Source: Candidatus Absconditabacteria bacterium
GTDB taxonomy: Bacteria > Patescibacteriota > Gracilibacteria > Absconditabacterales > Absconditicoccaceae
Assembly: GCA_028693445.1 (NCBI GenBank)
Contig: JAQUVI010000001.1
Coordinates: forward strand, 1-64,000
Length of the DNA stretch: 64,000 nucleotides
Reading direction: 5' to 3'
The notes under the pieces were generated by a model, which was not told the DNA's origin, made no database searches, and was given only the letters and a program-made list of their open reading frames with translations. The translations under genes were made by a program, and so were the position numbers. Position 1 is the first letter of the stretch, and the number at the start of each line of letters is the position of its first letter. Shown here in pieces: positions 3,981 to 49,935 of the stretch.

Positions 3981-4160
3981 TGGGATTTTTTGTGGTTGTT
4001 GGCGTGGTTGCGGGGTTGTGTGGGTGTTGGGTGTAATATGGTGGGGTGTGGGGTGTACTCTAAGTCATTGCGAGAAGCCAAAGCGACGTGGCAATCTATG
4101 CGACTATTTTTTTGTCCTAAAGGCACTTGCCCCGCAGAATTGCCTGGTCAGTCCCGCTAA
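3981..4160 (+). repeat. G/T-rich spacer and GTCATTGCGAG palindromic repeat
   Basis: 3981-4060 is almost pure G and T on this strand and very unlike the AT-rich genes. At 4064-4098 lies an interspersed element beginning GTCATTGCGAG and ending GTGGCAATC, so ATTGC and GCAAT form terminal inverted repeats. Relatives are at 10175, 10910, 17020 and 17755. A CCCGCT/AGCGGG hairpin follows near 4153. No gene is supported here. Confidence 0.6.
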
Positions 4161-4212
4161 AGCGGGATAATTTACAACAGATCCAAAAATTATTTTTTTC
4201 TTTTTTTGTTGC

Positions 4213-4240
4213 TTGAAAAACTTATACAAATCTTTATAAT
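4213..4240 (+). promoter_or_regulatory. Promoter of hicBA-1
   Basis: TTGAAA, 16 bases, TATAAT, ending 30 bases before the hicB start codon. The 16-base spacing matches other native promoters here. The second copy is at 11058-11085. Confidence 0.65.
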
Positions 4241-4270
4241 GTACTTGGTTTTATATTTAACCAATAAAAA

Positions 4271-4519
4271 ATGTTTACAGATTATATTCATTATCTTCTA
4301 GCAAAAGCAGCTTATGAAAAAGATGAAAACTGATATATTGTTGCAAGTGTACCTTGATATCAAGGGTTTTTTTCACAATGACAAAATATAGAAGAAGCAA
4401 GAGAAAATCTTGTAGATGCTATTGAATGAGTTGTTTTTCATAAAATACAACATAACGATAAAAAAATAATTAAAGAAATAAAAACATTTATTTCCAAGCA
4501 AAATTTGCAATATGCCTAG
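4271..4519 (+). CDS. hicB: HicB-family antitoxin 1
   Basis: 82 residues. The HicB core is visible: GYIVASVPGYQGFFSQG, then NIEEARENLVDAIEG, the partial RNase-H-like fold of HicB antitoxins. These bind HicA and block its mRNA cleavage, and often repress their own operon. No C-terminal DNA-binding domain is evident in the short tail. hicA starts 8 bases inside this gene, so the two are translationally coupled. The order is antitoxin first. A TTGAAA-N16-TATAAT promoter lies just upstream. Confidence 0.85.
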
Positions 4520-4730
4520 ATTGGTTCCATTAAAACCAGAAGAAATTATCAAAAAATTAAGAAAATTATGATACGAATGACCTGAATCATGAGGTAGACA
4601 TTTACATATGATCAAATGACCAAATATAATACCAATTCCAAAACATTGATGAAGTGAAATATGAGTTGGTTTAATATCAAAGATCATTAAAGAAGTATGA
4701 ATTTCTAGAAACGAATGGATAGAATTATAA
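4512..4730 (+). CDS. hicA: HicA-family mRNA interferase toxin 1
   Basis: 72 residues with six UGA glycines. The family pattern is clear: LVPLKPEEIIKKLRKLGYE, then GGRHLHMIKG with the His of the HicA active-site loop, and IPIPKHGGSEIGVGLISKII. HicA is a small double-stranded-RNA-binding-fold ribonuclease that cleaves mRNA when free of HicB. It overlaps hicB by 8 bases and is followed by a strong terminator at 4794-4820. Confidence 0.88.
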
Positions 4731-4793
4731 TTAATCTCTTGTAGATCTAATTATTGACACATACGACTTTGTCTTCGGGCATCGTTCAGAAAG

Positions 4794-4820
4794 ACCCTTG
4801 GCTTCGGCTGAGGGTTTTTT
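4794..4820 (+). terminator. Terminator of hicBA-1
   Basis: ACCCTTGGC-TTCG-GCTGAGGGT followed by T6, a UUCG-capped hairpin. It is a short form of the island repeat without the 5' hairpin. The second copy is at 11639-11665. Confidence 0.85.
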
Positions 4821-4838
4821 GTGTTGTCAAAAAAAGAT

Positions 4839-4866
4839 TTGATTTTTGTATTTTTTCTTGTATAAT
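4839..4866 (+). promoter_or_regulatory. Promoter of dinD
   Basis: TTGATT, 16 bases, TATAAT, ending 30 bases before the start codon. The second copy is at 11684-11711. No LexA-type operator is recognisable. Confidence 0.65.
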
Positions 4867-4896
4867 TGTGGAAATTTATATTGTAATTAATAAGTA

Positions 4897-5727
4897 ATGG
4901 ATGAACTTAATACAGGTTTATTAATTAGTAAATTTGATAATATCAAAAATATAGATAGTTCTGTAGAATGGCGAAGAGCAAGAGATCTTCAAAAATTGCT
5001 TTGATATACAGAACGAAGAAATTTTTTCTTGGTAATAGAAAAAGCTAAAGAATCGTGTAAAACGTCTTGATCGGTTATAAAAGATCACTTTGTTGATGTC
5101 AACAAACCGATAATTGGTGGTAAGTGATCGATCCAACTTGTAGAAGATTTTATGCTTTCTCGTTTTGCTTGTTATCTTATTGCTCAAAATTGAGATCCAA
5201 GAAAACAAGAGATAGCTTTTGCTCAAGCTTATTTTGCTACACAAACAAGAAAACAAGAGATTTTAGAAAAATATATGGTAGAACATCAAAGACTTTTGAG
5301 TAGACAGAAATTAAAAAACACAGAAGCGGAATTTCAAAAGTTGGCATACGAAAGATGAGTTAATTGAGACTGAATAAGTAGAATAAGAAGTAAATGAGAT
5401 ACTGTTTTGTTTGGAGGTAAAACAACTCAAGATATGAAAAAATCTTATTGAATAAAAAGCTGACCCTTAGCTGATTATCTTCCAGAAGTTACTATCAAAG
5501 CAAAGGATTTGGCAACAGAAGTAACTAATTATAATATGAAAAACAAGAATCTTAAATGAGAGGATACTATAACACACGAACATATAAAAAATAATCAATG
5601 AGTTAGAGAGTACTTGATTCAAAGTTGAATAAAACCCGAAGAATTACCACCATCAGAAGATATTAAGAAGATTGAAAGAAGACACAAAAAAGACGAAAAA
5701 ATAATTTCCAAAAGATGATTAAATTAA
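4897..5727 (+). CDS. dinD: DinD-like DNA-damage-inducible protein
   Basis: 276 residues. The N-terminal half matches the DinD family: SSVEWRRARDLQKLLGYTER, NFFLVIEKAKESCKTSG, DHFVDVNKPI, FMLSRFACYLIAQNGDP and QAYFATQTRKQEI in the usual order. DinD inhibits RecA filaments in Escherichia coli and shares a BRO-like domain with phage antirepressors. The C-terminal half is also family-like (GDTVLFGG, then DYLPEVTIKAKDLATE). The ATG at 4897 follows a clear promoter. Unlike the toxins, it has no opposing RNA gene downstream. RecA inhibition is known only from the family. Confidence 0.85.
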
Positions 5728-5738
5728 TCTCTCTTGGA

Positions 5739-5882
5739 GATCTAATTGTTAGACATATATAACTAAACCAACCAAAGAATCTGTAAAGAAATTGCTTTGG
5801 ATTTGTTAAGAATACCGCTGATTTGAGAAATTGTAAGTCATTGGAATTGAAATGAATTACAACTTTCGAAAACAAGCGGTAT
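5739..5882 (+). repeat. Two-hairpin 3' module after dinD
   Basis: Contains CCAAAG...CTTTGG and then a long imperfect hairpin bounded by ATACCGCT and AGCGGTAT (5812-5882), with an inner arm pairing AAATTGTAAGTCATT with AATGAATTACAACTTT. The same module follows the Bro-N gene (9048-9192) with few changes, and both recur in the second direct-repeat copy. It joins directly to island repeat R4. It may be an RNA structure or a small non-autonomous element. Confidence 0.55.
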
Positions 5883-5967
5883 AACCTCGCCTCGGCGTGG
5901 TACAAAGAACCCTTGGACTTTTATCCGGCAGAATTGCGGGATCGGTCTGAGGGTTTTTTGTGTTGTT
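5881..5967 (+). repeat. Island repeat R4: hairpin plus terminator
   Basis: Full-length module-end repeat with CTCG in place of TTCG at the first hairpin tip and GGGATCGG for GGGACCGG in the arm. It ends with the AGGGTTTTTTG terminator. The second copy is at 12726-12812. Confidence 0.8.
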
Positions 5968-6051
5968 GTTTTCTTTTGTCCTACTTTTGTCAGTTTTTTT
6001 CTTTTTTTGTATCTGTAAAGTTCACTCGCTTTACTTCGTAATATAGGAAAA

Positions 6052-6873
6052 ATGAAAAAAACGACAGCGATCAATGTCCAATGAGTAGCTATTGGCATAG
6101 TAGAAACCAACCAAGAAAGCTATATTAGTTTGACTGATATGGTAAAAAATTTTTGAGACGATGCTATGATCTATAGTTGGATGAGAAACAGATCTACTTT
6201 ACAATTTATTTGATTATGGGAACAGTTACACAATCCAAATTTTAAAGGTAACGAATTCGAGACCTTTAAAAAAGAAGCATGATTGAACACATTCAATTTA
6301 ACACCAAGAAAATGGATAGAAGCGACTAATGCTATATGAATAATTTCAAAGGCGTGAAGATATTGAGGATGAACTTATGCACACAAGGATATTGCATTTG
6401 AGTTTGCCTCTTGGTTAAGTCCTGAATTTAAACTTTATCTTATCAAAGAATTCCAAAGACTCAAAGAACAAGAAGTCAAAGCATTAGATCGAGATGTAAA
6501 AAGATTTCTGACTAAAATGAACTATAGAATCCATACAGACGCTATTCAAGATTATCTTGTGCCCAAAGAACTTTCTAAAGACGAAATAAACCATATTTAC
6601 GCCGATGAGGCAGATGTGCTAAACAAATCATTATTTGGACAAACAGCAAAACAGCGAAAAGATAAGAATTTAACAAAAAAATGAAATATGAGGGATTTCG
6701 CGACAATAGAACAACTAATAATCTTAGCAAACCTAGAAAGTATCAATGCAGAGTTTATCAAAATGTGAATAAACCAATCCAAACGTCTTCAGATATTAAA
6801 CCAAACAGCAATTAGCCAAATGAAATCATTGATCCAAAATCAGAATAGAATTGTTTGATTAGAGAATAAATAA
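6052..6873 (+). CDS. KilA-N domain protein 2
   Basis: 273 residues, paralogue of the gene at 3055. The first 25 residues and the last 150 are almost identical to that protein, while the DNA-binding core (residues about 30-110) differs strongly, with MIYSWMRNRSTLQFIGL and WIEATNAIGIISKAGRYGGG. GGTYAHKDIAFEFASWLSPE is the KilA-N signature. Divergence confined to the recognition domain suggests different DNA targets with a shared partner or oligomer surface (inference). It has the same leader hairpin as its paralogue. Confidence 0.85.
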
Positions 6874-6885
6874 TTATTGACATAT

Positions 6886-6972
6886 ATAACCTCGCTTCTG
6901 CGTGGTGCAAAGAACCCTTGGACTTTTATCCGGCAGAATTGCGGGACCGGTCTGAGGGTTATTTGTGTTGTT
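6886..6972 (+). repeat. Island repeat R5: hairpin plus weakened terminator
   Basis: Module-end repeat with the T tract interrupted (GGGTTATTTG), so termination here is probably weaker. The second copy is at 13731-13817. Confidence 0.75.
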
Positions 6973-7009
6973 GGGATTTTTTGTGGTTTTTTGTTGTTGG
7001 CGTTGTTGC

Positions 7010-7054
7010 GGGGTGGGTGTTGGGTGTAGGGTTGGGTGTGCGTGTAGGGTTGGG
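7010..7054 (+). other. G-quadruplex-capable G-run cluster
   Basis: Consecutive runs GGGG-T-GGG-TGTT-GGG-TGTA-GGG-TT-GGG, followed by two more GGG runs. This meets the usual G3-loop pattern several times over on the + strand. It sits in a G/T-rich spacer and recurs at 13855-13899. Folding has not been shown. Confidence 0.6.
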
Positions 7055-7096
7055 TGTGCATGTGTGGTATTTGGTGCGTGTGCGTGTATGGTATGT

Positions 7097-7120
7097 AGAG
7101 ACGCGATTAATCGCGTCTCT
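7097..7120 (+). repeat. 24-bp perfect palindrome
   Basis: AGAGACGCGATT followed by its exact reverse complement. Related or identical palindromes lie at 9377-9400 (GGCGCG variant), 13942-13965, 16222-16245 and, in frame within a gene, at 28774-28797. It is an interspersed palindromic repeat. Confidence 0.8.
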
Positions 7121-7220
7121 AACCGTAACCGTAACCGTAACCGTAACCGTAACCGTAACCGTAACCGTAACCGTAACCGTAACCGTAACCGTAACCGTAA
7201 CCGTAACCGTAACCGTAACC
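7121..7220 (+). repeat. (AACCGT)n tandem array
   Basis: Nearly 17 exact 6-bp units directly after the palindrome. Every reading frame through it is open, which creates spurious open frames with periodic peptides such as TVTV or RNRN. An array of the same length is at 13966-14065. Confidence 0.95.
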
Positions 7221-7329
7221 ACGCCAAAACATTATTATCAACCAACAAAAATCTTTGTCCTACTTTTGTCAGTTTTTTTCTTTGTAAAATTGTATATAGT
7301 CCGCATATTTAATTTTTAACTTATAAAAA

Positions 7330-7824
7330 ATGTGCGATATTGTAATACAATCCTTAAAAGAAACCATACAATCCTTGGACGAAAACCAAAAATTAGAATG
7401 AGAAAGCTTTGTTTATCGATCAAAGAAAAAAATTAAAATACATTTCAAAAAGATAGAAGGTATTTTTGTACCACATAAATGAGAAATATACTATGTTCAG
7501 TTATGAAAAAATATTTCTACAGAATTAAATAAGAAAAGACCATGTATTGTTTGGAGTGAAAAAAAATATAATGCATGATGAAATCTTCTTATATTACCAC
7601 TGAAAACTTATCGTAATAAATTTCAAGAATGATACAATGTTGTTATAGACTCTACCAAAAACAACTGATTAACAAGAAAATCAATAATTACAATAACAGA
7701 TATAAAATCAGTTTCAAAAAATAGATTTTGAGGTAAAATATGAAACATTGAAGAAAAATATATGCAAATTATAGATCAGAAATTACAAGTTATTTTATGA
7801 TTAAAAAAACCCCTAAGCTACTAG
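7330..7824 (+). CDS. PemK/MazF-like toxin 1
   Basis: 164 residues with UGA = Gly. After a 55-residue N-terminal extension comes the PemK/MazF core: GEIYYVQLGKN, KKRPCIVWSEKKYNAGGN, LLILPLKTY, then SIITITDIKSVSKNRFGGKIG. These match the beta-barrel ribonuclease fold (G-IYYVDLG, RP-LV, PLT, QI--ISK-RL-KIG). No antitoxin gene is adjacent. Instead an apparent small RNA gene converges on the 3' end and its terminator overlaps the last 22 bases. The short N-terminal extension is shared in kind with the other two toxins. mRNA cleavage is inferred from the family. Confidence 0.82.
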
Positions 7825-7880
7825 AACTTAGAGGTAGATTCGCCCAATGTCTTGGGAACTAAGGATACTTCCTTAGAGAT
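7803..7880 (-). ncRNA. Predicted convergent small RNA 1
   Basis: On the minus strand a promoter at 7887-7914 is followed by about 78 bases that fold into three hairpins: CTAAGGA-AGTA-TCCTTAG, CCCAA-GACA-TTGGG, and a terminator CTAAG-loop-CTTAG followed by T7. The terminator lies inside the 3' end of the toxin gene, so the RNA is antisense to the last 22 bases of the toxin mRNA. No open frame of use is present. It is a candidate RNA antitoxin or regulator; transcription is inferred. Confidence 0.6.
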
Positions 7881-7886
7881 GATGCA

Positions 7887-7914
7887 ATTATAACAAAAAC
7901 ATTCCAAATTGCAA
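7887..7914 (-). promoter_or_regulatory. Promoter of small RNA 1
   Basis: Minus-strand TTGCAA, 16 bases, TATAAT, inside a stretch conserved at all three RNA types (TTTTGATTTGCAA upstream). Start expected near 7880. The second copy is at 14732-14759. Confidence 0.65.
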
Positions 7915-7920
7915 ATCAAA

Positions 7921-8004
7921 ATAACCTCACTTTTGCGTGGTGCGAAGTCCTCCGCGAAGTCGGGGGCAAAGAACCCTTAGACTTCAGTCTGAGGGTTTTT
8001 TGTG
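7921..8004 (+). repeat. Island repeat R6, variant with extra hairpin
   Basis: Starts ATAACCTCAC, carries an inserted CCTCCGCGAAGTCGGGGG hairpin, and ends with the compact terminator AACCCTTAGAC-TTCA-GTCTGAGGGTT plus T6. The second copy is at 14766-14849. Between here and 8130 an ACCGAT...ATCGGT hairpin lies near 8077-8108. Confidence 0.75.
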
Positions 8005-8130
8005 AAAATAAGCAAAGAATCTGTTGCTTAGTTGCTTGTACCCTTTAGGGTGCTTTGCTATATTTGAACAATACCGATGTGTTGAGTCGCCATCAAGAAA
8101 CCAATCGGTGTTGTGTTGTCAAAAAAAGAT

Positions 8131-8159
8131 TTGATTTTTATTTGTAAATTGTTTATAAT
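8131..8159 (+). promoter_or_regulatory. Promoter of the Bro-N gene
   Basis: TTGATT, 17 bases, TATAAT, ending 29 bases before the start codon. The sequence before it (GTTGTCAAAAAAAGATTTGATTT) equals that before dinD. The second copy is at 14976-15004. Confidence 0.65.
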
Positions 8160-8188
8160 TGACGTGTTTAGCTTGTAATCATATAAAA

Positions 8189-9040
8189 ATGTCAGGTATA
8201 AATAACACTATCACTGAAATTTCTTTATTTGATGTTTTTGAAGTTAGAAAAATTCGATACAATGAAGAACGATATTTTCCCATTAATGATATCGTTTTTG
8301 TTCTTACAGAAAGCAAAAATGTTGTTGATTATATCAAAAAATTGAAAATTAGAGATAAAGAGCTCTTGAAAGGATGGGGACAAATTGTCACCCCCCTTTG
8401 GGTAGATACCAAATGATGACGCCAAAAACTCAACTGTACCAATACAAAATGAGCGCTTAGAATCCTCCAATCTATCTCATCTCCCAAAGCAGAACCATTT
8501 AAACAATGGTTGGCTTCACTTTGAAATGAAAGGTTGGATGAAATTAATAATCCAGAATTATGAATTCAAAGAGCAAAAGCTAGAGCTATTGAGATACGAA
8601 GAAAACAATGACATGATGAAAAATGGATTACAAAAAGATTACAAAGTATAGATACAAGAAATTCTTTTACAGATTTACTCAAAGAGAGAGGAATCAAAGA
8701 TTGGTTTGAGTATGCTTTGTTGACCAATAAAGTTTATAGTGTTTGATTGTGAGTACCTGGTTGAGCGTCGGAATATAGAAATATAAAATGAATCAAAAAA
8801 ACAGATAATCTTAGAGATCATATGGATAATTTGGAAATAGCATTAGTTGATTTAGCAGAAGCATGATCCCAAAAAATTATGGAAGAGAAATGAAGTAAGT
8901 GATTTGAAGAAGTCCAGGATGCTGTAATTATATGATCATGAGTCGCATGAGAAGCTAGAGATACTATAGAAAAATATATATGAAAACCAATTATTTCTGA
9001 TAAAAATTATAAACCGGATTCCAAAAAATGATTAAATTAA
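8189..9040 (+). CDS. Bro-N / phage antirepressor-like protein
   Basis: 283 residues. The Bro-N core is visible: ISLFDVFEVRKIRYNEERYF, INDIVFVLTESKNVVDYIKK, GWGQIVTPLWVDTKGGRQKL, then ISSPKAEPFKQWLA, a hallmark of prophage antirepressor proteins. The following part (ARAIEIRRKQGHDEKWITKR, then FTDLLKERGI) is the usual C-terminal extension of this family in bacteria. It ends in KKGLN like DinD and is followed by the same two-hairpin module, so the 3' halves of the two units are related. The DNA-binding role is family knowledge. Confidence 0.85.
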
Positions 9041-9047
9041 TCTCTCG

Positions 9048-9192
9048 AGATCTAATTGTTAGACATATATAACTAAACCAACCAAAGAATCTGTAAAGAA
9101 ATTGCTTTGGATTGGTTAAGAATACCGCTGATTTGAGAAATTGTAAGTCATTGGAATTGAAATGAATTACAACTTTCGAAAACAAGCGGTAT
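9048..9192 (+). repeat. Two-hairpin 3' module after Bro-N
   Basis: Nearly identical to 5739-5882, including the ATACCGCT/AGCGGTAT closing arms. It runs directly into island repeat R7. Confidence 0.55.
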
Positions 9193-9272
9193 ACCCTCGC
9201 CTCGGCGTGGTACATAGAACCCTTGGACTTTTATCCGGCAGAATTGCGGGACCGGTCTGAGGGTTTTTTGTG
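9191..9272 (+). repeat. Island repeat R7: hairpin plus terminator
   Basis: Module-end repeat starting ATACCCTCGC and ending AGGGTTTTTTGTG. After it come a G/T-rich stretch (9290-9376), a variant palindrome (9377-9400) and a GTCATCCCT...GGGGATC hairpin near 9439. No gene is seen in 9273-9564. The second copy is at 16036-16117. Confidence 0.75.
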
Positions 9273-9376
9273 AAAATAAAATTTTGTTGTGTGCAGGGTT
9301 GGTGTGGTTGCGGGGTGCGGGGCGGTGTCGGTTGGGATGTGTAATGTGGTTGCGTGTGTGCGTGTATATGATATGT

Positions 9377-9400
9377 AGAGGCGCGATTAATCGCGCCTCT
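9377..9400 (+). repeat. 24-bp palindrome, GC variant
   Basis: AGAGGCGCGATT plus its reverse complement. Compared with the palindrome at 7097, the A-T pair near each end is exchanged for G-C on both arms, so the change is compensated and pairing is kept. The second copy is at 16222-16245. Confidence 0.75.
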
Positions 9401-9564
9401 AACCGTACATCATTTCATCGTTTTGTTTGTTGTTTCTTTGTCATCCCTAACTTGATTGGGGATCTTAGCTGAATGTTTTTTTTCATGGGGATGATATAGA
9501 TGACCAATCTGGATTTCCTCTCCAAATTGCAATCCAAACGGTATCAGTAAATCATTACATTGTA

Positions 9565-9592
9565 TTGAATTTGTCAAAAATATTGTTAAAAT
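9565..9592 (+). promoter_or_regulatory. Promoter of hicBA-2
   Basis: TTGAAT, 16 bases, TAAAAT, ending 31 bases before hicB-2. The second copy is at 16410-16437. Confidence 0.5.
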
Positions 9593-9623
9593 TCAGACAC
9601 ATTTATGATTTAACTATAAAAAG

Positions 9624-9836
9624 ATGGAAATAATAATAAGAAAAGATGGGGAATGATACATAGCAGAAGTAAAATCTAAACCAAATATTTATGCTTTTTG
9701 ATATTCAAAAGAAGAGGCTTTGAGTGAGTTAAAAAATGTAGTAGATATGATGGTTGATTTTTATTCACAAGAAATGTCTTTTCAAAAGAAAGTTAAAAAG
9801 TTTTTGATAAACAAATCTTATACATATGCCGTATAA
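9624..9836 (+). CDS. hicB: HicB-family antitoxin 2
   Basis: 70 residues. IIIRKDGEGYIAEVKSKPN and YSKEEALSELKNVVDMMV give the compact HicB fold. It is much shorter than many HicB proteins and lacks a DNA-binding tail. It overlaps hicA-2 by 11 bases. It differs in sequence from hicB-1, so the two systems are likely separate pairs. Confidence 0.8.
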
Positions 9837-10041
9837 ATTCCGCGATATAGAAAGAAGGCTCAGAAAATTGTGATTTGATATTGTAAGACAAAAATGATCT
9901 CATGTGATTTTTTCTGATTGAAAGATAACTTTCCCTGTTCCAAACCATTGATGAAAGGATATATCTCCATGAGTAGAAAAGAAAATTCTAGAATTCATCT
10001 CCAAAAATAAACAAGATTTTGATAAAATTTTAGATATATAA
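9826..10041 (+). CDS. hicA: HicA-family mRNA interferase toxin 2
   Basis: 71 residues. RDIERRLRKLGFDIVRQKGSHVIFSDGK contains the GSH active-site motif, followed by FPVPNHGGKDISPGVEKKIL. This is closer to the canonical HicA consensus than HicA-1. Its TAA stop lies inside the first bases of island repeat R8 (ATAACC), so the repeat abuts the coding region directly. Confidence 0.85.
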
Positions 10042-10103
10042 CCTCGCTTCGGCGTGGTACAGAAAAACCCTTGAACTCCGGTCTGAGGGTTTTTTGTGTT
10101 GTT
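10038..10103 (+). repeat. Island repeat R8, short form
   Basis: ATAACCTCGCTTCGGCGTGG hairpin, then AACCCTTGAACTCCGGTCTGAGGGTT plus T6. The central arm is deleted. It supplies the hicA-2 stop codon and terminator. The second copy is at 16883-16948. Confidence 0.8.
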
Positions 10104-10174
10104 GGATTTTTGTGGTTGTTGGCGTGGTTGCGGGGTGCGGGGCGTAATTTGGTGGTGCGTGTGCTGTGCTCTCA

Positions 10175-10203
10175 GTCATTGCGAGCGACAGCGCGGCAAT
10201 CCA
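10175..10203 (+). repeat. GTCATTGCGAG palindromic repeat
   Basis: GTCATTGCGAGCGACAGCGC followed by GGCAATCCA; ATTGC and GCAAT pair. It lies before pemK-2, after a G/T-rich spacer. The second copy is at 17020-17048. Confidence 0.6.
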
Positions 10204-10292
10204 TACGGTTATTTCTTTGTCCTAACTTTGTCAGTTTTTTTCTTTTTTTGTATCTGTAAAGTTCACTCGCTTTACTTTGTAAACTAGGAAAG

Positions 10293-10721
10293 ATGAAAAA
10301 GACAGATGTGATTTTTGATTTGTGGAATGGTAAAAAGAAAAATATAGAAAAAGAAACATCCAAAAAGATAGTCAAAAAAAGACAGATTCGATTATATTAT
10401 GTTTGAATTAATGTATGAAACGAGGAAAGCAAAGACAACCCTTTTATTAGACCTTGCTTGATTGTAAATAATTATTTTAGATGAGATCTTGTTTTAATTG
10501 TTCCTATGACGACCAAAATAAATACAAATCTCAAAGATATTTATTATCAGATTGATTGAACTAAATATTGATTAAACAAAACCAGTTATGTCTTATGTAA
10601 CCAAATAAAAGTAATAAGTAAAAAAAGATTAAATAGAAAACTAAATGATACAGATGATATCTCTCTGCTAAATAATGATGTTTTTTTGGAAATTATAGAG
10701 AAATTAAAAAGTTTTATATAA
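10293..10721 (+). CDS. PemK/MazF-like toxin 2
   Basis: 142 residues. The core runs from QIRLYYVGINVG through IRPCLIVNNYFRGDLVLIVP and TTKINT to SYVLCNQIKVISKKRLNRKL. The RP-LIVNN and PMT motifs and the QIK-ISK-RL segment are family marks. It has an N-terminal extension of about 35 residues starting with a FDLWN motif shared with toxin 3 (FDIWN). It uses the KilA-N type of leader hairpin. No antitoxin gene is adjacent; a convergent RNA gene begins beyond its 3' end. Confidence 0.82.
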
Positions 10722-10779
10722 AAAAATCCCCTGCAGTATTGCAGGGTCAGGTGGATACGCAAAAGCTATCCTTATTTGT
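10720..10779 (-). ncRNA. Predicted convergent small RNA 2
   Basis: About 60 bases on the minus strand after the promoter at 10786-10813. It has a GGATA...TATCC hairpin and a perfect terminator CCCTGCA-ATAC-TGCAGGG followed by T7. It reaches only the stop codon of the toxin gene. Its sequence is unrelated to small RNAs 1 and 3, although promoter and layout match. Confidence 0.6.
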
Positions 10780-10785
10780 ACTATA

Positions 10786-10813
10786 ATTATAGCAAAAGAT
10801 TTGTGAAATGCAA
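10786..10813 (-). promoter_or_regulatory. Promoter of small RNA 2
   Basis: Minus-strand TTGCAT, 16 bases, TATAAT, with the same TTTTGATTTGCA block as the other two RNA promoters. The second copy is at 17631-17658. Confidence 0.65.
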
Positions 10814-10819
10814 ATCAAA

Positions 10820-10905
10820 ATAACCTCGCCTCGGCGTGGTACATAGAACCCTTTGACTTTTATCTGGCAGAATTGCGGGACCGGTCTGAGGGTTTTTTGT
10901 GTTGT
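10820..10905 (+). repeat. Island repeat R9: hairpin plus terminator
   Basis: Full-length module-end repeat (AACCCTTTGAC arm). A GTCATTGCGAG element at 10910-10943 follows and marks the junction between the two long repeat copies. Confidence 0.8.
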
Positions 10906-11115
10906 CAAAGTCATTGCGAGGAGCCAAAGCGACGTGGCAATCCATGCGGTAGTTTTTTTGTCCTAAAGGCACTTGCCCGCAGAATTGCCTGGTCAGTCCC
11001 GCTAAAGCGGGATAATTTACAACAGATCCAAAAATTATTTTTTTCTTTTTTTGTTGCTTGAAAAACTTATACAAATCTTTATAATGTACTTGGTTTTATA
11101 TTTAACCAATAAAAA

Positions 11116-11364
11116 ATGTTTACAGATTATATTCATTATCTTCTAGCAAAAGCAGCTTATGAAAAAGATGAAAACTGATATATTGTTGCAAGTGTACCTT
11201 GATATCAAGGGTTTTTTTCACAATGACAAAATATAGAAGAAGCAAGAGAAAATCTTGTAGATGCTATTGAATGAGTTGTTTTTCATAAAATACAACATAA
11301 CGATAAAAAAATAATTAAAGAAATAAAAACATTTATTTCCAAGCAAAATTTGCAATATGCCTAG
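11116..11364 (+). CDS. hicB: HicB-family antitoxin 1, second copy
   Basis: Same sequence as the gene at 4271-4519 (82 residues), within copy B of the long repeat. Same promoter (11058-11085) and the same 8-base overlap with hicA. Confidence 0.85.
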
Positions 11365-11575
11365 ATTGGTTCCATTAAAACCAGAAGAAATTATCAAAAA
11401 ATTAAGAAAATTATGATACGAATGACCTGAATCATGAGGTAGACATTTACATATGATCAAATGACCAAATATAATACCAATTCCAAAACATTGATGAAGT
11501 GAAATATGAGTTGGTTTAATATCAAAGATCATTAAAGAAGTATGAATTTCTAGAAACGAATGGATAGAATTATAA
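11357..11575 (+). CDS. hicA: HicA-family toxin 1, second copy
   Basis: Same sequence as 4512-4730 (72 residues), followed by the UUCG-capped terminator at 11639-11665. Confidence 0.86.
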
Positions 11576-11741
11576 TTAATCTCTTGTAGATCTAATTATT
11601 GACACATACGACTTTGTCTTCGGGCATCGTTCAGAAAGACCCTTGGCTTCGGCTGAGGGTTTTTTGTGTTGTCAAAAAAAGATTTGATTTTTGTATTTTT
11701 TCTTGTATAATTGTGGAAATTTATATTGTAATTAATAAGTA

Positions 11742-12572
11742 ATGGATGAACTTAATACAGGTTTATTAATTAGTAAATTTGATAATATCAAAAATATAGA
11801 TAGTTCTGTAGAATGGCGAAGAGCAAGAGATCTTCAAAAATTGCTTTGATATACAGAACGAAGAAATTTTTTCTTGGTAATAGAAAAAGCTAAAGAATCG
11901 TGTAAAACGTCTTGATCGGTTATAAAAGATCACTTTGTTGATGTCAACAAACCGATAATTGGTGGTAAGTGATCGATCCAACTTGTAGAAGATTTTATGC
12001 TTTCTCGTTTTGCTTGTTATCTTATTGCTCAAAATTGAGATCCAAGAAAACAAGAGATAGCTTTTGCTCAAGCTTATTTTGCTACACAAACAAGAAAACA
12101 AGAGATTTTAGAAAAATATATGGTAGAACATCAAAGACTTTTGAGTAGACAGAAATTAAAAAACACAGAAGCGGAATTTCAAAAGTTGGCATACGAAAGA
12201 TGAGTTAATTGAGACTGAATAAGTAGAATAAGAAGTAAATGAGATACTGTTTTGTTTGGAGGTAAAACAACTCAAGATATGAAAAAATCTTATTGAATAA
12301 AAAGCTGACCCTTAGCTGATTATCTTCCAGAAGTTACTATCAAAGCAAAGGATTTGGCAACAGAAGTAACTAATTATAATATGAAAAACAAGAATCTTAA
12401 ATGAGAGGATACTATAACACACGAACATATAAAAAATAATCAATGAGTTAGAGAGTACTTGATTCAAAGTTGAATAAAACCCGAAGAATTACCACCATCA
12501 GAAGATATTAAGAAGATTGAAAGAAGACACAAAAAAGACGAAAAAATAATTTCCAAAAGATGATTAAATTAA
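11742..12572 (+). CDS. dinD: DinD-like protein, second copy
   Basis: Same sequence as 4897-5727 (276 residues). Promoter at 11684-11711. The two-hairpin module (12584-12727) and repeat R4' (12726-12812) follow. Confidence 0.85.
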
Positions 12573-12725
12573 TCTCTCTTGGAGATCTAATTGTTAGACA
12601 TATATAACTAAACCAACCAAAGAATCTGTAAAGAAATTGCTTTGGATTTGTTAAGAATACCGCTGATTTGAGAAATTGTAAGTCATTGGAATTGAAATGA
12701 ATTACAACTTTCGAAAACAAGCGGT

Positions 12726-12812
12726 ATAACCTCGCCTCGGCGTGGTACAAAGAACCCTTGGACTTTTATCCGGCAGAATTGCGGGATCGGTCTGAGGGTT
12801 TTTTGTGTTGTT
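12726..12812 (+). repeat. Island repeat R4', second copy
   Basis: Same as 5881-5967; ends the dinD unit. Confidence 0.8.
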
Positions 12813-12896
12813 GTTTTCTTTTGTCCTACTTTTGTCAGTTTTTTTCTTTTTTTGTATCTGTAAAGTTCACTCGCTTTACTTCGTAATATAGGAAAA

Positions 12897-13718
12897 ATGA
12901 AAAAAACGACAGCGATCAATGTCCAATGAGTAGCTATTGGCATAGTAGAAACCAACCAAGAAAGCTATATTAGTTTGACTGATATGGTAAAAAATTTTTG
13001 AGACGATGCTATGATCTATAGTTGGATGAGAAACAGATCTACTTTACAATTTATTTGATTATGGGAACAGTTACACAATCCAAATTTTAAAGGTAACGAA
13101 TTCGAGACCTTTAAAAAAGAAGCATGATTGAACACATTCAATTTAACACCAAGAAAATGGATAGAAGCGACTAATGCTATATGAATAATTTCAAAGGCGT
13201 GAAGATATTGAGGATGAACTTATGCACACAAGGATATTGCATTTGAGTTTGCCTCTTGGTTAAGTCCTGAATTTAAACTTTATCTTATCAAAGAATTCCA
13301 AAGACTCAAAGAACAAGAAGTCAAAGCATTAGATCGAGATGTAAAAAGATTTCTGACTAAAATGAACTATAGAATCCATACAGACGCTATTCAAGATTAT
13401 CTTGTGCCCAAAGAACTTTCTAAAGACGAAATAAACCATATTTACGCCGATGAGGCAGATGTGCTAAACAAATCATTATTTGGACAAACAGCAAAACAGC
13501 GAAAAGATAAGAATTTAACAAAAAAATGAAATATGAGGGATTTCGCGACAATAGAACAACTAATAATCTTAGCAAACCTAGAAAGTATCAATGCAGAGTT
13601 TATCAAAATGTGAATAAACCAATCCAAACGTCTTCAGATATTAAACCAAACAGCAATTAGCCAAATGAAATCATTGATCCAAAATCAGAATAGAATTGTT
13701 TGATTAGAGAATAAATAA
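12897..13718 (+). CDS. KilA-N domain protein 2, second copy
   Basis: Same sequence as 6052-6873 (273 residues), with the same leader hairpin (12860-12879) and the weakened terminator repeat at 13731-13817 downstream. Confidence 0.85.
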
Positions 13719-13730
13719 TTATTGACATAT

Positions 13731-13817
13731 ATAACCTCGCTTCTGCGTGGTGCAAAGAACCCTTGGACTTTTATCCGGCAGAATTGCGGGACCGGTCTGA
13801 GGGTTATTTGTGTTGTT
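13731..13817 (+). repeat. Island repeat R5', second copy
   Basis: Same as 6886-6972, including the interrupted T tract. A G-quadruplex-capable cluster (13855-13899) follows. Confidence 0.75.
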
Positions 13818-13941
13818 GGGATTTTTTGTGGTTTTTTGTTGTTGGCGTTGTTGCGGGGTGGGTGTTGGGTGTAGGGTTGGGTGTGCGTGTAGGGTTGGGT
13901 GTGCATGTGTGGTATTTGGTGCGTGTGCGTGTATGGTATGT

Positions 13942-14065
13942 AGAGACGCGATTAATCGCGTCTCTAACCGTAACCGTAACCGTAACCGTAACCGTAACCG
14001 TAACCGTAACCGTAACCGTAACCGTAACCGTAACCGTAACCGTAACCGTAACCGTAACCGTAACC
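13942..14065 (+). repeat. Palindrome and (AACCGT)n array, second copy
   Basis: 24-bp palindrome at 13942-13965, then the 6-bp tandem array at 13966-14065 with the same number of units as copy A. Confidence 0.9.
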
Positions 14066-14174
14066 ACGCCAAAACATTATTATCAACCAACAAAAATCTT
14101 TGTCCTACTTTTGTCAGTTTTTTTCTTTGTAAAATTGTATATAGTCCGCATATTTAATTTTTAACTTATAAAAA

Positions 14175-14669
14175 ATGTGCGATATTGTAATACAATCCTT
14201 AAAAGAAACCATACAATCCTTGGACGAAAACCAAAAATTAGAATGAGAAAGCTTTGTTTATCGATCAAAGAAAAAAATTAAAATACATTTCAAAAAGATA
14301 GAAGGTATTTTTGTACCACATAAATGAGAAATATACTATGTTCAGTTATGAAAAAATATTTCTACAGAATTAAATAAGAAAAGACCATGTATTGTTTGGA
14401 GTGAAAAAAAATATAATGCATGATGAAATCTTCTTATATTACCACTGAAAACTTATCGTAATAAATTTCAAGAATGATACAATGTTGTTATAGACTCTAC
14501 CAAAAACAACTGATTAACAAGAAAATCAATAATTACAATAACAGATATAAAATCAGTTTCAAAAAATAGATTTTGAGGTAAAATATGAAACATTGAAGAA
14601 AAATATATGCAAATTATAGATCAGAAATTACAAGTTATTTTATGATTAAAAAAACCCCTAAGCTACTAG
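14175..14669 (+). CDS. PemK/MazF-like toxin 1, second copy
   Basis: Same sequence as 7330-7824 (164 residues), with the same convergent RNA gene at its 3' end. Confidence 0.82.
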
Positions 14670-14725
14670 AACTTAGAGGTAGATTCGCCCAATGTCTTGG
14701 GAACTAAGGATACTTCCTTAGAGAT
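14648..14725 (-). ncRNA. Predicted convergent small RNA 1, second copy
   Basis: Same as 7803-7880, with its promoter at 14732-14759 and repeat R6' at 14766-14849. Confidence 0.6.
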
Positions 14726-14765
14726 GATGCAATTATAACAAAAACATTCCAAATTGCAAATCAAA

Positions 14766-14849
14766 ATAACCTCACTTTTGCGTGGTGCGAAGTCCTCCGC
14801 GAAGTCGGGGGCAAAGAACCCTTAGACTTCAGTCTGAGGGTTTTTTGTG
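14766..14849 (+). repeat. Island repeat R6', second copy
   Basis: Same as 7921-8004. Confidence 0.75.
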
Positions 14850-15033
14850 AAAATAAGCAAAGAATCTGTTGCTTAGTTGCTTGTACCCTTTAGGGTGCTT
14901 TGCTATATTTGAACAATACCGATGTGTTGAGTCGCCATCAAGAAACCAATCGGTGTTGTGTTGTCAAAAAAAGATTTGATTTTTATTTGTAAATTGTTTA
15001 TAATTGACGTGTTTAGCTTGTAATCATATAAAA

Positions 15034-15885
15034 ATGTCAGGTATAAATAACACTATCACTGAAATTTCTTTATTTGATGTTTTTGAAGTTAGAAAAATTC
15101 GATACAATGAAGAACGATATTTTCCCATTAATGATATCGTTTTTGTTCTTACAGAAAGCAAAAATGTTGTTGATTATATCAAAAAATTGAAAATTAGAGA
15201 TAAAGAGCTCTTGAAAGGATGGGGACAAATTGTCACCCCCCTTTGGGTAGATACCAAATGATGACGCCAAAAACTCAACTGTACCAATACAAAATGAGCG
15301 CTTAGAATCCTCCAATCTATCTCATCTCCCAAAGCAGAACCATTTAAACAATGGTTGGCTTCACTTTGAAATGAAAGGTTGGATGAAATTAATAATCCAG
15401 AATTATGAATTCAAAGAGCAAAAGCTAGAGCTATTGAGATACGAAGAAAACAATGACATGATGAAAAATGGATTACAAAAAGATTACAAAGTATAGATAC
15501 AAGAAATTCTTTTACAGATTTACTCAAAGAGAGAGGAATCAAAGATTGGTTTGAGTATGCTTTGTTGACCAATAAAGTTTATAGTGTTTGATTGTGAGTA
15601 CCTGGTTGAGCGTCGGAATATAGAAATATAAAATGAATCAAAAAAACAGATAATCTTAGAGATCATATGGATAATTTGGAAATAGCATTAGTTGATTTAG
15701 CAGAAGCATGATCCCAAAAAATTATGGAAGAGAAATGAAGTAAGTGATTTGAAGAAGTCCAGGATGCTGTAATTATATGATCATGAGTCGCATGAGAAGC
15801 TAGAGATACTATAGAAAAATATATATGAAAACCAATTATTTCTGATAAAAATTATAAACCGGATTCCAAAAAATGATTAAATTAA
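15034..15885 (+). CDS. Bro-N protein, second copy
   Basis: Same sequence as 8189-9040 (283 residues). Promoter at 14976-15004. The two-hairpin module and repeat R7' (16036-16117) follow. Confidence 0.85.
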
Positions 15886-16035
15886 TCTCTCGAGATCTAA
15901 TTGTTAGACATATATAACTAAACCAACCAAAGAATCTGTAAAGAAATTGCTTTGGATTGGTTAAGAATACCGCTGATTTGAGAAATTGTAAGTCATTGGA
16001 ATTGAAATGAATTACAACTTTCGAAAACAAGCGGT

Positions 16036-16117
16036 ATACCCTCGCCTCGGCGTGGTACATAGAACCCTTGGACTTTTATCCGGCAGAATTGCGGGACCGG
16101 TCTGAGGGTTTTTTGTG
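16036..16117 (+). repeat. Island repeat R7', second copy
   Basis: Same as 9191-9272. A G/T-rich spacer and the GC-variant palindrome (16222-16245) follow, with no gene until 16469. Confidence 0.75.
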
Positions 16118-16468
16118 AAAATAAAATTTTGTTGTGTGCAGGGTTGGTGTGGTTGCGGGGTGCGGGGCGGTGTCGGTTGGGATGTGTAATGTGGTTGCGT
16201 GTGTGCGTGTATATGATATGTAGAGGCGCGATTAATCGCGCCTCTAACCGTACATCATTTCATCGTTTTGTTTGTTGTTTCTTTGTCATCCCTAACTTGA
16301 TTGGGGATCTTAGCTGAATGTTTTTTTTCATGGGGATGATATAGATGACCAATCTGGATTTCCTCTCCAAATTGCAATCCAAACGGTATCAGTAAATCAT
16401 TACATTGTATTGAATTTGTCAAAAATATTGTTAAAATTCAGACACATTTATGATTTAACTATAAAAAG

Positions 16469-16681
16469 ATGGAAATAATAATAAGAAAAGATGGGGAATG
16501 ATACATAGCAGAAGTAAAATCTAAACCAAATATTTATGCTTTTTGATATTCAAAAGAAGAGGCTTTGAGTGAGTTAAAAAATGTAGTAGATATGATGGTT
16601 GATTTTTATTCACAAGAAATGTCTTTTCAAAAGAAAGTTAAAAAGTTTTTGATAAACAAATCTTATACATATGCCGTATAA
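16469..16681 (+). CDS. hicB: HicB-family antitoxin 2, second copy
   Basis: Same sequence as 9624-9836 (70 residues). Promoter at 16410-16437. Confidence 0.8.
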
Positions 16682-16886
16682 ATTCCGCGATATAGAAAGA
16701 AGGCTCAGAAAATTGTGATTTGATATTGTAAGACAAAAATGATCTCATGTGATTTTTTCTGATTGAAAGATAACTTTCCCTGTTCCAAACCATTGATGAA
16801 AGGATATATCTCCATGAGTAGAAAAGAAAATTCTAGAATTCATCTCCAAAAATAAACAAGATTTTGATAAAATTTTAGATATATAA
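16671..16886 (+). CDS. hicA: HicA-family toxin 2, second copy
   Basis: Same sequence as 9826-10041 (71 residues). The stop codon again lies in the first bases of the short repeat R8' (16883-16948). Confidence 0.85.
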
Positions 16887-16948
16887 CCTCGCTTCGGCGT
16901 GGTACAGAAAAACCCTTGAACTCCGGTCTGAGGGTTTTTTGTGTTGTT
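16883..16948 (+). repeat. Island repeat R8', second copy
   Basis: Same as 10038-10103. A GTCATTGCGAG element (17020-17048) and the leader hairpin (17101-17120) follow before pemK-2. Confidence 0.8.
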
Positions 16949-17137
16949 GGATTTTTGTGGTTGTTGGCGTGGTTGCGGGGTGCGGGGCGTAATTTGGTGG
17001 TGCGTGTGCTGTGCTCTCAGTCATTGCGAGCGACAGCGCGGCAATCCATACGGTTATTTCTTTGTCCTAACTTTGTCAGTTTTTTTCTTTTTTTGTATCT
17101 GTAAAGTTCACTCGCTTTACTTTGTAAACTAGGAAAG

Positions 17138-17566
17138 ATGAAAAAGACAGATGTGATTTTTGATTTGTGGAATGGTAAAAAGAAAAATATAGAAAAAGAA
17201 ACATCCAAAAAGATAGTCAAAAAAAGACAGATTCGATTATATTATGTTTGAATTAATGTATGAAACGAGGAAAGCAAAGACAACCCTTTTATTAGACCTT
17301 GCTTGATTGTAAATAATTATTTTAGATGAGATCTTGTTTTAATTGTTCCTATGACGACCAAAATAAATACAAATCTCAAAGATATTTATTATCAGATTGA
17401 TTGAACTAAATATTGATTAAACAAAACCAGTTATGTCTTATGTAACCAAATAAAAGTAATAAGTAAAAAAAGATTAAATAGAAAACTAAATGATACAGAT
17501 GATATCTCTCTGCTAAATAATGATGTTTTTTTGGAAATTATAGAGAAATTAAAAAGTTTTATATAA
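17138..17566 (+). CDS. PemK/MazF-like toxin 2, second copy
   Basis: Same sequence as 10293-10721 (142 residues), with the convergent RNA 2 at its 3' end. Confidence 0.82.
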
Positions 17567-17624
17567 AAAAATCCCCTGCAGTATTGCAGGGTCAGGTGGA
17601 TACGCAAAAGCTATCCTTATTTGT
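17565..17624 (-). ncRNA. Predicted convergent small RNA 2, second copy
   Basis: Same as 10720-10779, promoter at 17631-17658. Confidence 0.6.
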
Positions 17625-17664
17625 ACTATAATTATAGCAAAAGATTTGTGAAATGCAAATCAAA

Positions 17665-17750
17665 ATAACCTCGCCTCGGCGTGGTACATAGAACCCTTTG
17701 ACTTTTATCTGGCAGAATTGCGGGACCGGTCTGAGGGTTTTTTGTGTTGT
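17665..17750 (+). repeat. Island repeat R9', second copy
   Basis: Same as 10820-10905. The GTCATTGCGAG element at 17755-17783 follows, where the long repeat ends. Confidence 0.8.
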
Positions 17751-17871
17751 CAAAGTCATTGCGAGCGGCAGCGTGGCAATCCATGTGGTTGTTTCTTTGT
17801 CCTAACTTTGTCAGTTTTTTTCTTTGTAAAATTGTATATAGTCCACAAACTTTATATACTAACCAAAGAAA

Positions 17872-18273
17872 ATGGACAACAAAAAGGAGTTGTTTGATAT
17901 TTGGAATGAGGAAAAAAAACATGTTGCACAAAAAGAACAGAAAATATATTTTAAGGAAAGAGATGTATTTTTCATAAGTATGTGAAAAAATATATGACGA
18001 GAACAGAATGGTAAATGAAGTAAATTCGCAAGACCTGTAATAATTATAAAAAAATTTACAAACAATTTATTTCGATGAGTAGCATTAACAACCAAAAAGA
18101 AAACATGAATCTATTATTATGAATTTGATTTAAAAAGTAATAAATGAAAAAGAATAGCTATTTTATCTCAGATAAAACTTTATGACTCAAAGAGAATGTT
18201 AAGCAAAATCTGATTTATTGATGAGAAAGATTTTTTATATATAAGAAAAAAACTTACTGAACTATTGCAGTAA
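17872..18273 (+). CDS. PemK/MazF-like toxin 3
   Basis: 133 residues. The FDIWNEE N-terminus resembles toxin 2 (FDLWNGK). The core is DVFFISMGKNIGREQNGKG, FARPVIIIKKFTNNLFRGVA, TTKKKTG, then RIAILSQIKLYDSKRMLSKIG. This is the best PemK match of the three: G-IGREQNG-G--FARPV is close to the MazF/PemK consensus. The leader up to the start (GTAAAATTGTATATAGTCC) is shared with pemK-1. No protein antitoxin is present. A convergent RNA gene overlaps its last 28 bases. Confidence 0.85.
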
Positions 18274-18369
18274 GCATGTTTTCTGTCCCAACATAAGTTA
18301 GGACGATCCCGAAGGAGTTTTTGTGCCTGTGCCAGATAGTCCGGCAAAATGGGACGAACCCTTCAGACA
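18246..18369 (-). ncRNA. Predicted convergent small RNA 3, highly structured
   Basis: About 124 bases on the minus strand. An outer stem GTCCCA...TGGGAC encloses GCC-GGACTATCT-GGC and a CCTTCGGG hairpin. After it comes a perfect terminator CTTACTG-CAATAGTT-CAGTAAG followed by T7, lying within the toxin gene's 3' end. It is longer and more folded than RNAs 1 and 2. This is the strongest structural case for a functional RNA in the island. No known RNA family is recognised. Confidence 0.62.
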
Positions 18370-18403: not shown

Positions 18404-18409
18404 ATCAAA

Positions 18410-18450
18410 ATACCCTCACCTAGGCGTGGTGCGAAGTCCTCCGCATAGTC
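18410..18450 (+). repeat. Truncated island repeat R10
   Basis: ATACCCTCACCTAGGCGTGG hairpin and part of the R6-type insert, without the terminator. It is the last trace of the island. From here to rpsL there is no gene; an ATCAGAC...GTCTGATTTTT pairing near 18508-18566 may act as a weak terminator. Confidence 0.6.
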
Positions 18451-18577
18451 GGTAGATTTTAACCAAATATTTCCTTGTATTCTCTTTATAAATATGTAAA
18501 AATATCAGACGATATGCCATTAAATTTATCAATAATAATCAAAATACAAAAAAAGTCTGATTTTTCTTCATTTTCTC

Positions 18578-49910: not shown

Positions 49911-49935
49911 TTAAATTTGTTTTTGTCAGTTAGCA

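What the first reader, a model, noticed from the sequence alone, without database searches (positions are those of the whole stretch)
7330..7914. Second type of toxin with its own convergent RNA
The same layout as at pemK-3 with a conserved promoter but a different three-hairpin RNA. The RNA terminator stem lies within the toxin's last codons, so the coding end is constrained to fold on the other strand. Conserved promoter plus variable RNA body is what specific toxin-RNA pairs would give.
Basis: partly seen in the sequence, partly recalled or inferred. Interest (0 to 1): 0.8.

Follow-up and report, generated by a model that had tools for sequence, protein, structure and literature searches.

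The report
RNA-partnered PemK toxin of Patescibacteria
A predicted RNA-cutting toxin gene of the PemK/MazF kind is nearly always accompanied, at its far end and on the opposite DNA strand, by a small folded RNA gene; the pairing recurs across the tiny-genome bacteria called Patescibacteria, so the RNA is very probably the toxin's antidote.

Summary
At 7330-7824 lies a 164-aa PemK-domain protein (code 25). On the other strand lies a small RNA: -35 TTGCAA, 16 nt, -10 TATAAT, predicted start near 7880, three hairpins, and a T7 terminator over the toxin's last codons.

Beyond this window, 123 of 127 PemK proteins with an N-terminal extension have such an RNA by automated scan, against 2 of 27 without one. 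A pattern of promoter and RNA alone, run through 257 Gb of genomes and viral contigs, landed beside this toxin family in 95 of 119 stretches: mostly Patescibacteria, plus Campylobacterota and a viral contig.

Stems covary, wobble pairs fit the minus strand, and RNA bodies track the toxin (Mantel r 0.25) while promoters do not. Intact RNAs occur without a toxin; toxins hardly ever without an RNA.

Best explanation: an RNA antitoxin, more likely binding the PemK protein (type III-like) than acting by antisense alone (type I). Layout and toxin family exclude classical type III. The RNA matches no Rfam family. A likely relative exists: C. jejuni plasmid pVir carries this toxin family, and its RNA antitoxin CjrA is reported as type I; their identity was not verified. 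There are no expression or binding data here.

The parts
7330..7824 (+). PemK/MazF-domain toxin (clade 2), 164 aa, code 25; PemK domain aa 50-156, N-terminal extension aa 1-49
   Evidence: ORF; PF02452 E=3.1e-20; clade-2 alignments
7909..7914 (-). -35 TTGCAA of the RNA gene
   Evidence: sequence; consensus over 99 relatives TTGACT/TTGCAA/TTGATT
7887..7892 (-). -10 TATAAT of the RNA gene
   Evidence: TATAAT is the commonest -10 (46 of 99) with 16-17 nt spacers
7803..7880 (-). predicted small RNA, about 78 nt (+1 placed 7 nt after the -10, as in relatives)
   Evidence: fold z=-3.3; start position
7859..7876 (-). RNA hairpin 1, CUAAGGA-AGUA-UCCUUAG
7843..7856 (-). RNA hairpin 2, CCCAA-GACA-UUGGG
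7803..7834 (-). intrinsic terminator (hairpin 3 plus U7), stem straddling the toxin stop codon 7822-7824
14175..14669 (+). second copy of the same toxin in the 6.9-kb duplication
14648..14759 (-). second copy of the RNA and its promoter (identical)
10293..10721 (+). PemK toxin 'pemK-1' (clade 1, FDxWNxKKK extension); copy at 17138-17566
10721..10779 (-). its short-form RNA, 59 nt, starting ACAAAU; promoter TTGCAT/TATAAT 10813-10786
   Evidence: (z=-4.5)
17872..18273 (+). PemK toxin 'pemK-3' (clade 1)
18244..18369 (-). its RNA, about 125 nt, with an extra 5' hairpin; core recognised by covariance model R1 at 18321-18282, E=2.5e-7; promoter 18403-18376
   Evidence: (z=-5.9)

Best explanation
A two-gene toxin-antitoxin system: a PemK/MazF-fold endoribonuclease with an N-terminal extension, and a convergent small RNA antitoxin with its own sigma-70-type promoter. 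Shown here: the RNA gene is nearly obligatory beside this toxin family, has conserved structure on the minus strand and varies together with its toxin. Inferred: the RNA neutralises the toxin, mainly by binding the protein. The unpaired 5' end, which begins at the predicted start site with AC(A/U)(A/U) (most often ACAAAU), would sit in the active site as a mimic of the toxin's cleavage product, and the two hairpins would provide pair-specific contacts. MazF enzymes commonly cut in front of ACA (established knowledge of E. coli and B. subtilis MazF), so an RNA that begins there leaves nothing to cut. Because the toxin mRNA reads through the RNA gene, antisense pairing could add a second layer of control.
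For: Near-obligatory link: strict scan 99/127 versus 1/27; relaxed promoter+two-hairpin scan recovers 24 of the 28 strict failures, versus 2/27 unextended PemKs and 8% of shuffles. Link found from the RNA side: 95 of 119 promoter+RNA pattern matches in genome and viral contigs lie at the 3' end of this toxin. Covariance model R1 over 482 kb: the 36 matches with E<0.01 sit at the 3' ends of PemK toxins on the opposite strand. Structure: covariation score 0.387 versus at most 0.162 for slid partners and 0.167 shuffled; hairpin 1 is 98% paired with two-sided changes. Two-hairpin energy median -26.6 versus -13.2 shuffled. Strand: internal G-U versus A-C 61:13 in stems, shuffled 29:25. 5' motif AC[A/U][A/U] in 71/99, in 63 with A exactly 7 nt after the -10, against 15-20% in control windows. 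Base +3 is A in clade 1 and U in clade 2 (39:17 versus 1:14, p=1e-5). RNA body tracks toxin, promoter does not. Asymmetry: about 12 intact RNAs without a toxin, one (L292) with only a toxin C-terminal remnant. No protein antitoxin gene adjoins the finding. Nearest solved structures are MazF/EndoA, which bind ACA-type RNA.
Against: No expression, toxicity, binding or cleavage data. Promoters and terminators are consensus matches. Co-variation of linked genes partly reflects common descent. Clade-2 RNAs, this finding's included, are not recognised by the clade-1 covariance model, so their homology rests on layout. The window 7330 RNA lacks a clean AC(A/U)(A/U) start. In some clade-2 toxins the residue aligned with the catalytic Thr of EndoA is Lys, so catalysis is not assured. 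CjrA on C. jejuni pVir, possibly a member, is described as a type I antisense antitoxin (PMC10470494, PMC7826846).
Confidence: 0.62

Rival explanations
1. Type I antisense control: the RNA pairs with the 3' end of the toxin mRNA (which reads through the RNA gene) and triggers RNase III decay or blocks translation, as SR6/yonT and RatA/TxpA do in B. subtilis.
For: Same convergent 3'-overlapping layout as SR6/yonT (PMC5848175, listed). In 71 of 99 pairs the terminator lies within the toxin's last codons. CjrA of C. jejuni pVir is described as an antisense type I antitoxin, and pVir carries a member of this toxin family.
Against: An antisense RNA needs no conserved fold or shared sequence across divergent toxins, yet stems covary and the core is shared over a phylum. 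Many hairpin-1 loops are UUCG, a stability loop rather than a pairing loop. In 28 of 99 pairs the RNA does not reach the coding region. Intact RNAs persist without a toxin. Type I toxins are normally small hydrophobic peptides (PMC6563280); these are 130-165-aa PemK proteins.
Confidence: 0.25
2. Type II system with a protein antitoxin elsewhere or in the N-terminal extension; the convergent RNA only tunes toxin expression, like aMEF on E. coli mazEF.
For: The domain is PF02452, annotated as type II. An antisense RNA on a mazEF system is known (PMC8749433). The N-terminal extension could be a built-in inhibitor.
Against: No adjoining antitoxin gene at 7330; a mechanical small upstream ORF is less common for extended toxins (16/122) than for unextended ones (8/24). 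An accessory regulator would not be near-obligatory with a conserved fold or persist alone.
Confidence: 0.08
3. The stems work on the plus strand as a 3'-UTR element of the toxin mRNA; the minus-strand promoter and T-run are incidental.
For: Stems fold on both strands.
Against: G-U versus A-C asymmetry 61:13, T-runs on the minus strand and sigma-70 promoters with 16-17-nt spacing all point to the minus strand.
Confidence: 0.03

Closest known systems
Type III toxin-antitoxin systems (ToxIN, CptIN, TenpIN)
   Same: MazF/Kid-like endoribonuclease proposed to be held by a small structured RNA encoded next to it (PMC5086642)
   Different: Type III is a single-promoter operon with tandem RNA repeats upstream of the toxin and a terminator between them. 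Here the RNA is single-copy, convergent, has its own promoter and overlaps the toxin's 3' end; the toxin is PF02452, with no Pfam or PDB match to ToxN, CptN or TenpN
CjrA RNA antitoxin of C. jejuni plasmid pVir (Shen et al. 2016, cited in PMC7826846 and PMC10470494)
   Same: RNA antitoxin on pVir; pVir encodes an FDEWNEVKKHIEK-type PemK/MazF toxin (WP_011117588.1) with a promoter-like, hairpin-rich region convergent at its 3' end
   Different: Classified as type I antisense. The paper itself is not held, so that CjrA is this RNA, and its partner this toxin, is unverified; the pVir RNA carries an extra hairpin
B. subtilis type I systems with 3'-overlapping antisense RNA (yonT/SR6, txpA/RatA, bsrG/SR4)
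   Same: Convergent toxin and antitoxin genes overlapping at their 3' ends
   Different: Small peptide toxins; the RNA acts by base pairing; no shared RNA fold across families is expected
Type II PemK/MazF systems
   Same: Toxin domain PF02452; nearest solved structures are EndoA/MazF
   Different: No adjoining protein antitoxin; extra N-terminal extension (FDxWNxxKKxI in clade 1, FLxWFxxKIxINF in clade 2); obligatory RNA partner

Membership tests
Type III toxin-antitoxin | antitoxin RNA encoded upstream of the toxin in one operon | tested here: not met
   RNA gene is downstream and convergent with its own promoter; definition from PMC5086642
Type III toxin-antitoxin | antitoxin made of tandem repeats | tested here: not met
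   single copies of hairpin 1 and hairpin 2 in the RNAs
Type III toxin-antitoxin | toxin of the ToxN, CptN or TenpN family | tested here: not met
   all 78 aligned clade-1 toxins match PF02452 and no type III family; no ToxN chain among PDB matches to E=10
Type III toxin-antitoxin | RNA binds and inhibits the toxin protein | not testable with these tools
   inferred from conserved structure only
Type I toxin-antitoxin | RNA antisense to the toxin mRNA | tested here: inconclusive
   71/99 overlap the toxin CDS by part of the terminator, 28/99 do not; complementarity to a read-through 3' UTR is automatic
Type I toxin-antitoxin | small hydrophobic peptide toxin | tested here: not met
   130-165-aa soluble PemK-domain proteins
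Type I toxin-antitoxin | neutralisation by RNA-RNA pairing | not testable with these tools
   none
Type II PemK/MazF | PemK/MazF toxin domain | tested here: met
   PF02452, E=3e-20
Type II PemK/MazF | adjacent protein antitoxin gene | tested here: not met
   upstream gene (KilA-N) ends 456 nt before the toxin; no adjoining small ORF judged an antitoxin
Rfam family | match to a known RNA family | tested here: not met
   no match at gathering in the window, none at these RNAs at E<1 in 18 loci

The most novel reading that the evidence does not exclude
A separate class of RNA-antitoxin system, widespread in Patescibacteria and spread to Campylobacterota and phage-like elements, in which a single-copy, convergently encoded structured RNA inhibits an N-extended PemK/MazF toxin by binding it with a 5' end that mimics the toxin's cleavage product.
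Probability: 0.45. Interest if true: 0.85.

Novelty: new variant of a known kind. Interest (0 to 1): 0.76.

Why it matters
Extended PemK proteins are annotated as type II toxins without antitoxins. If the RNA is their antitoxin, many 'orphan' toxins of Patescibacteria have a partner, a conserved RNA family absent from Rfam gains a role, and the line between type I and type III systems can be tested in one family that has both antisense layout and conserved RNA structure. Free-living relatives (Arcobacter sp. CECT 8985) and recodable genes make it testable in laboratory E. coli. It also gives an annotation rule: an N-extended PemK predicts an RNA gene at its 3' end.

Tried and rejected
Rfam search of the window and of 18 loci: no family. 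PADLOC and NCBIfam: no specific family for the toxins. A plain MAFFT alignment misplaced hairpin 1 by one column, so trimmed seeds were used; hairpin 2 stays imperfectly aligned (66% paired). The N-terminal extension alone did not correlate with RNA distance (r=0.05): it is short, so this is uninformative. The upstream-ORF count is weak because the ORFs are mechanical. The -10/-35 calls for L001/L026-type rows can pick a wrong start (L026 did). CjpT identity: searches of the library did not settle it.

Full report
Setting. The window is G000:C11:1-64000 of a 1.17-Mb genome read with TGA=Gly (code 25, used by Absconditabacteria/Gracilibacteria). The first 18 kb hold a toxin and phage-related-gene island: HicA/HicB, Bro-N and KilA-N proteins and three kinds of PemK, with a 6.9-kb tandem duplication at 99.7% identity, so the finding occurs twice (7330 and 14175).

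The observation. On the strand opposite the toxin, -35 TTGCAA and -10 TATAAT are 16 nt apart, followed by hairpins at 7876-7859 and 7856-7843 and an intrinsic terminator (7834-7803) whose stem straddles the toxin stop codon. The RNA folds better than all 200 shuffles (z=-3.3), as do those beside the other two window toxins (z=-4.5 and -5.9). The promoter block is shared with pemK-3 at 95% over 38 nt; the RNA bodies are not.

Spread and association. PF02452 searches of relatives and profile searches over the class and phylum found two groups of PemK proteins with N-terminal extensions: clade 1 (FDxWNxxKKxI) and clade 2 (FLxWFxxKIxINF, which includes 7330). In a tree of 153 toxins each is one side of a branch with 97% SH-aLRT; one origin or two cannot be told apart. 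A scan requiring promoter, terminator and position succeeded for 79/107 clade-1 and 20/20 clade-2 toxins, 1/27 unextended PemKs, 6/381 shuffles and 1/51 other window ORFs. A relaxed promoter+two-hairpin scan recovered 24 of the 28 failures, with 2/27 unextended PemKs positive; two of the last four (L124, L148) show the RNA by eye. So about 98% of extended toxins have the RNA. Both code-25 and code-11 lineages are included.

From the RNA side. In 95 of these 119 the toxin profile matched directly upstream in the right frame and orientation. Hosts are mostly Patescibacteria (Nomurabacteria, Kaiserbacteria, Zambryskibacteria, Gracilibacteria, SR1 and others), with Campylobacterota (including Arcobacter sp. 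CECT 8985, between radC- and hsdM/hsdS-like genes), a Verrucomicrobiales and a Clostridiales bin; assignments are by record title. Of the rest, about ten look like chance matches and about twelve are intact RNAs without a toxin; in L292 only a C-terminal toxin remnant survives. Toxins almost never lack the RNA, whereas RNAs can lack the toxin: the asymmetry expected of an antitoxin. It was not checked whether the solitary RNAs face rearranged or unrecognised toxins. Plasmid and phage records add relatives in Campylobacter, Helicobacter and Nitratiruptor, annotated as type II PemK/MazF toxin or MazF; the four loci inspected have hairpin-rich convergent regions.

Structure and strand. Covariance model R1, built from 14 clade-1 cores, gave 51 matches (E up to 1) in 482 kb; those with E<0.01 sit at toxin 3' ends on the opposite strand, including pemK-3 of the window (E=2.5e-7), which was not in the seed. 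Hairpin 1 is 98% paired with U-A, G-C and C-G exchanges; the covariation score is 0.387 against at most 0.162 when partners are slid. The alignment was fitted to the model, which inflates this somewhat, and hairpin 2 is imperfectly aligned. Inside stems, G-U outnumbers A-C 61 to 13 while shuffles give 29 to 25, so the RNA is the minus strand.

The 5' end. In 71 of 99 RNAs an AC(A/U)(A/U) motif follows the promoter, in 63 with its A exactly 7 nt after the -10, the expected start. Base +3 is A for most clade-1 and U for nearly all clade-2 toxins (p=1e-5), and within clade 1 it follows the toxin's nearest relatives at distance 0.4 or more (p=0.01) while a promoter base does not. MazF enzymes commonly cut before ACA (established knowledge), and EndoA, a U^ACAU cutter, is the nearest solved structure. 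This suggests, without showing it, that the RNA's start imitates a cleavage product in the active site. A preference of RNA polymerase for starting with A could explain part of the motif.

Toxin-RNA co-variation. RNA-core distance correlates with toxin distance (r=0.25; clade 1: 0.32), promoter distance hardly (0.06), and no mismatched pair was seen. Common descent contributes; swap experiments are needed for specificity.

Mechanism. Type I antisense action cannot be excluded: the layout equals that of SR6/yonT (PMC5848175), and CjrA on pVir is reported as type I. Conserved fold, UUCG loops, RNAs that do not reach the coding region and solitary RNAs speak for direct action on the protein. Classical type III is excluded as a filing by layout, absence of repeats and toxin family, not as a working analogy.

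Known or new. No Rfam family. Literature searches found no report of this pairing in Patescibacteria; only open-licence papers were searchable. The decisive precedent, the CjrA paper, is not held. If CjrA proves to be this RNA, one member is experimentally known and the novelty lies in the conserved structure, the breadth and the likely mechanism.

Noticed in passing
4053-10966 and 10899-17805: 6.9-kb tandem duplication at 99.7% identity covering HicAB, Bro-N, KilA-N, PemK units; could be real or an assembly effect (reported contamination 6.15%).
   Followed up: partly
7121-7219 (copy at about 13966-14064): About 17 tandem CCGTAA hexamers upstream of the toxin.
   Followed up: no
e.g. 6885-6970, 7925-8005, 10815-10905, 18405-18455: A recurring hairpin-rich element (CCTCGC..GCGTGGTGC..AACCCTTGGAC..GTCTGAGGGTT) follows nearly every gene of the island, as if genes were exchanged as cassettes; it also lies directly upstream of the RNA promoters.
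   Followed up: no
6052-6873 and 8189-9040: KilA-N and Bro-N proteins match PADLOC candidate defence families PDC-S22 (E=5e-121) and PDC-S13 (E=2e-79).
   Followed up: no
47665-52479 (-): Three long ORFs with 0-1 TGA codons that by eye resemble Bacteroidota gliding-motility/type IX secretion proteins, in a genome that uses TGA for glycine; suggests recent gene transfer or a chimeric contig.
   Followed up: no
7330-7824, clade-2 toxins: The position aligned with the catalytic Thr of EndoA is Lys in several clade-2 toxins, 7330 included.
   Followed up: no
L214, L229, L234, L235, L239, L243, L250, L288, L291, L292, L295, L304: Intact RNA genes with promoter but no recognisable toxin upstream; possible toxin losses or anti-addiction RNAs.
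   Followed up: partly
L314 (IMG/VR contig), L275, L286: Members beside phage-like or integrase-like genes, and in L251 (Arcobacter) between radC- and restriction-modification-like genes.
   Followed up: no
L041 and L069 (L084): RNAs of about 140 nt carrying an additional hairpin before the usual core; pemK-3 of the window also has extra 5' hairpins.
   Followed up: no
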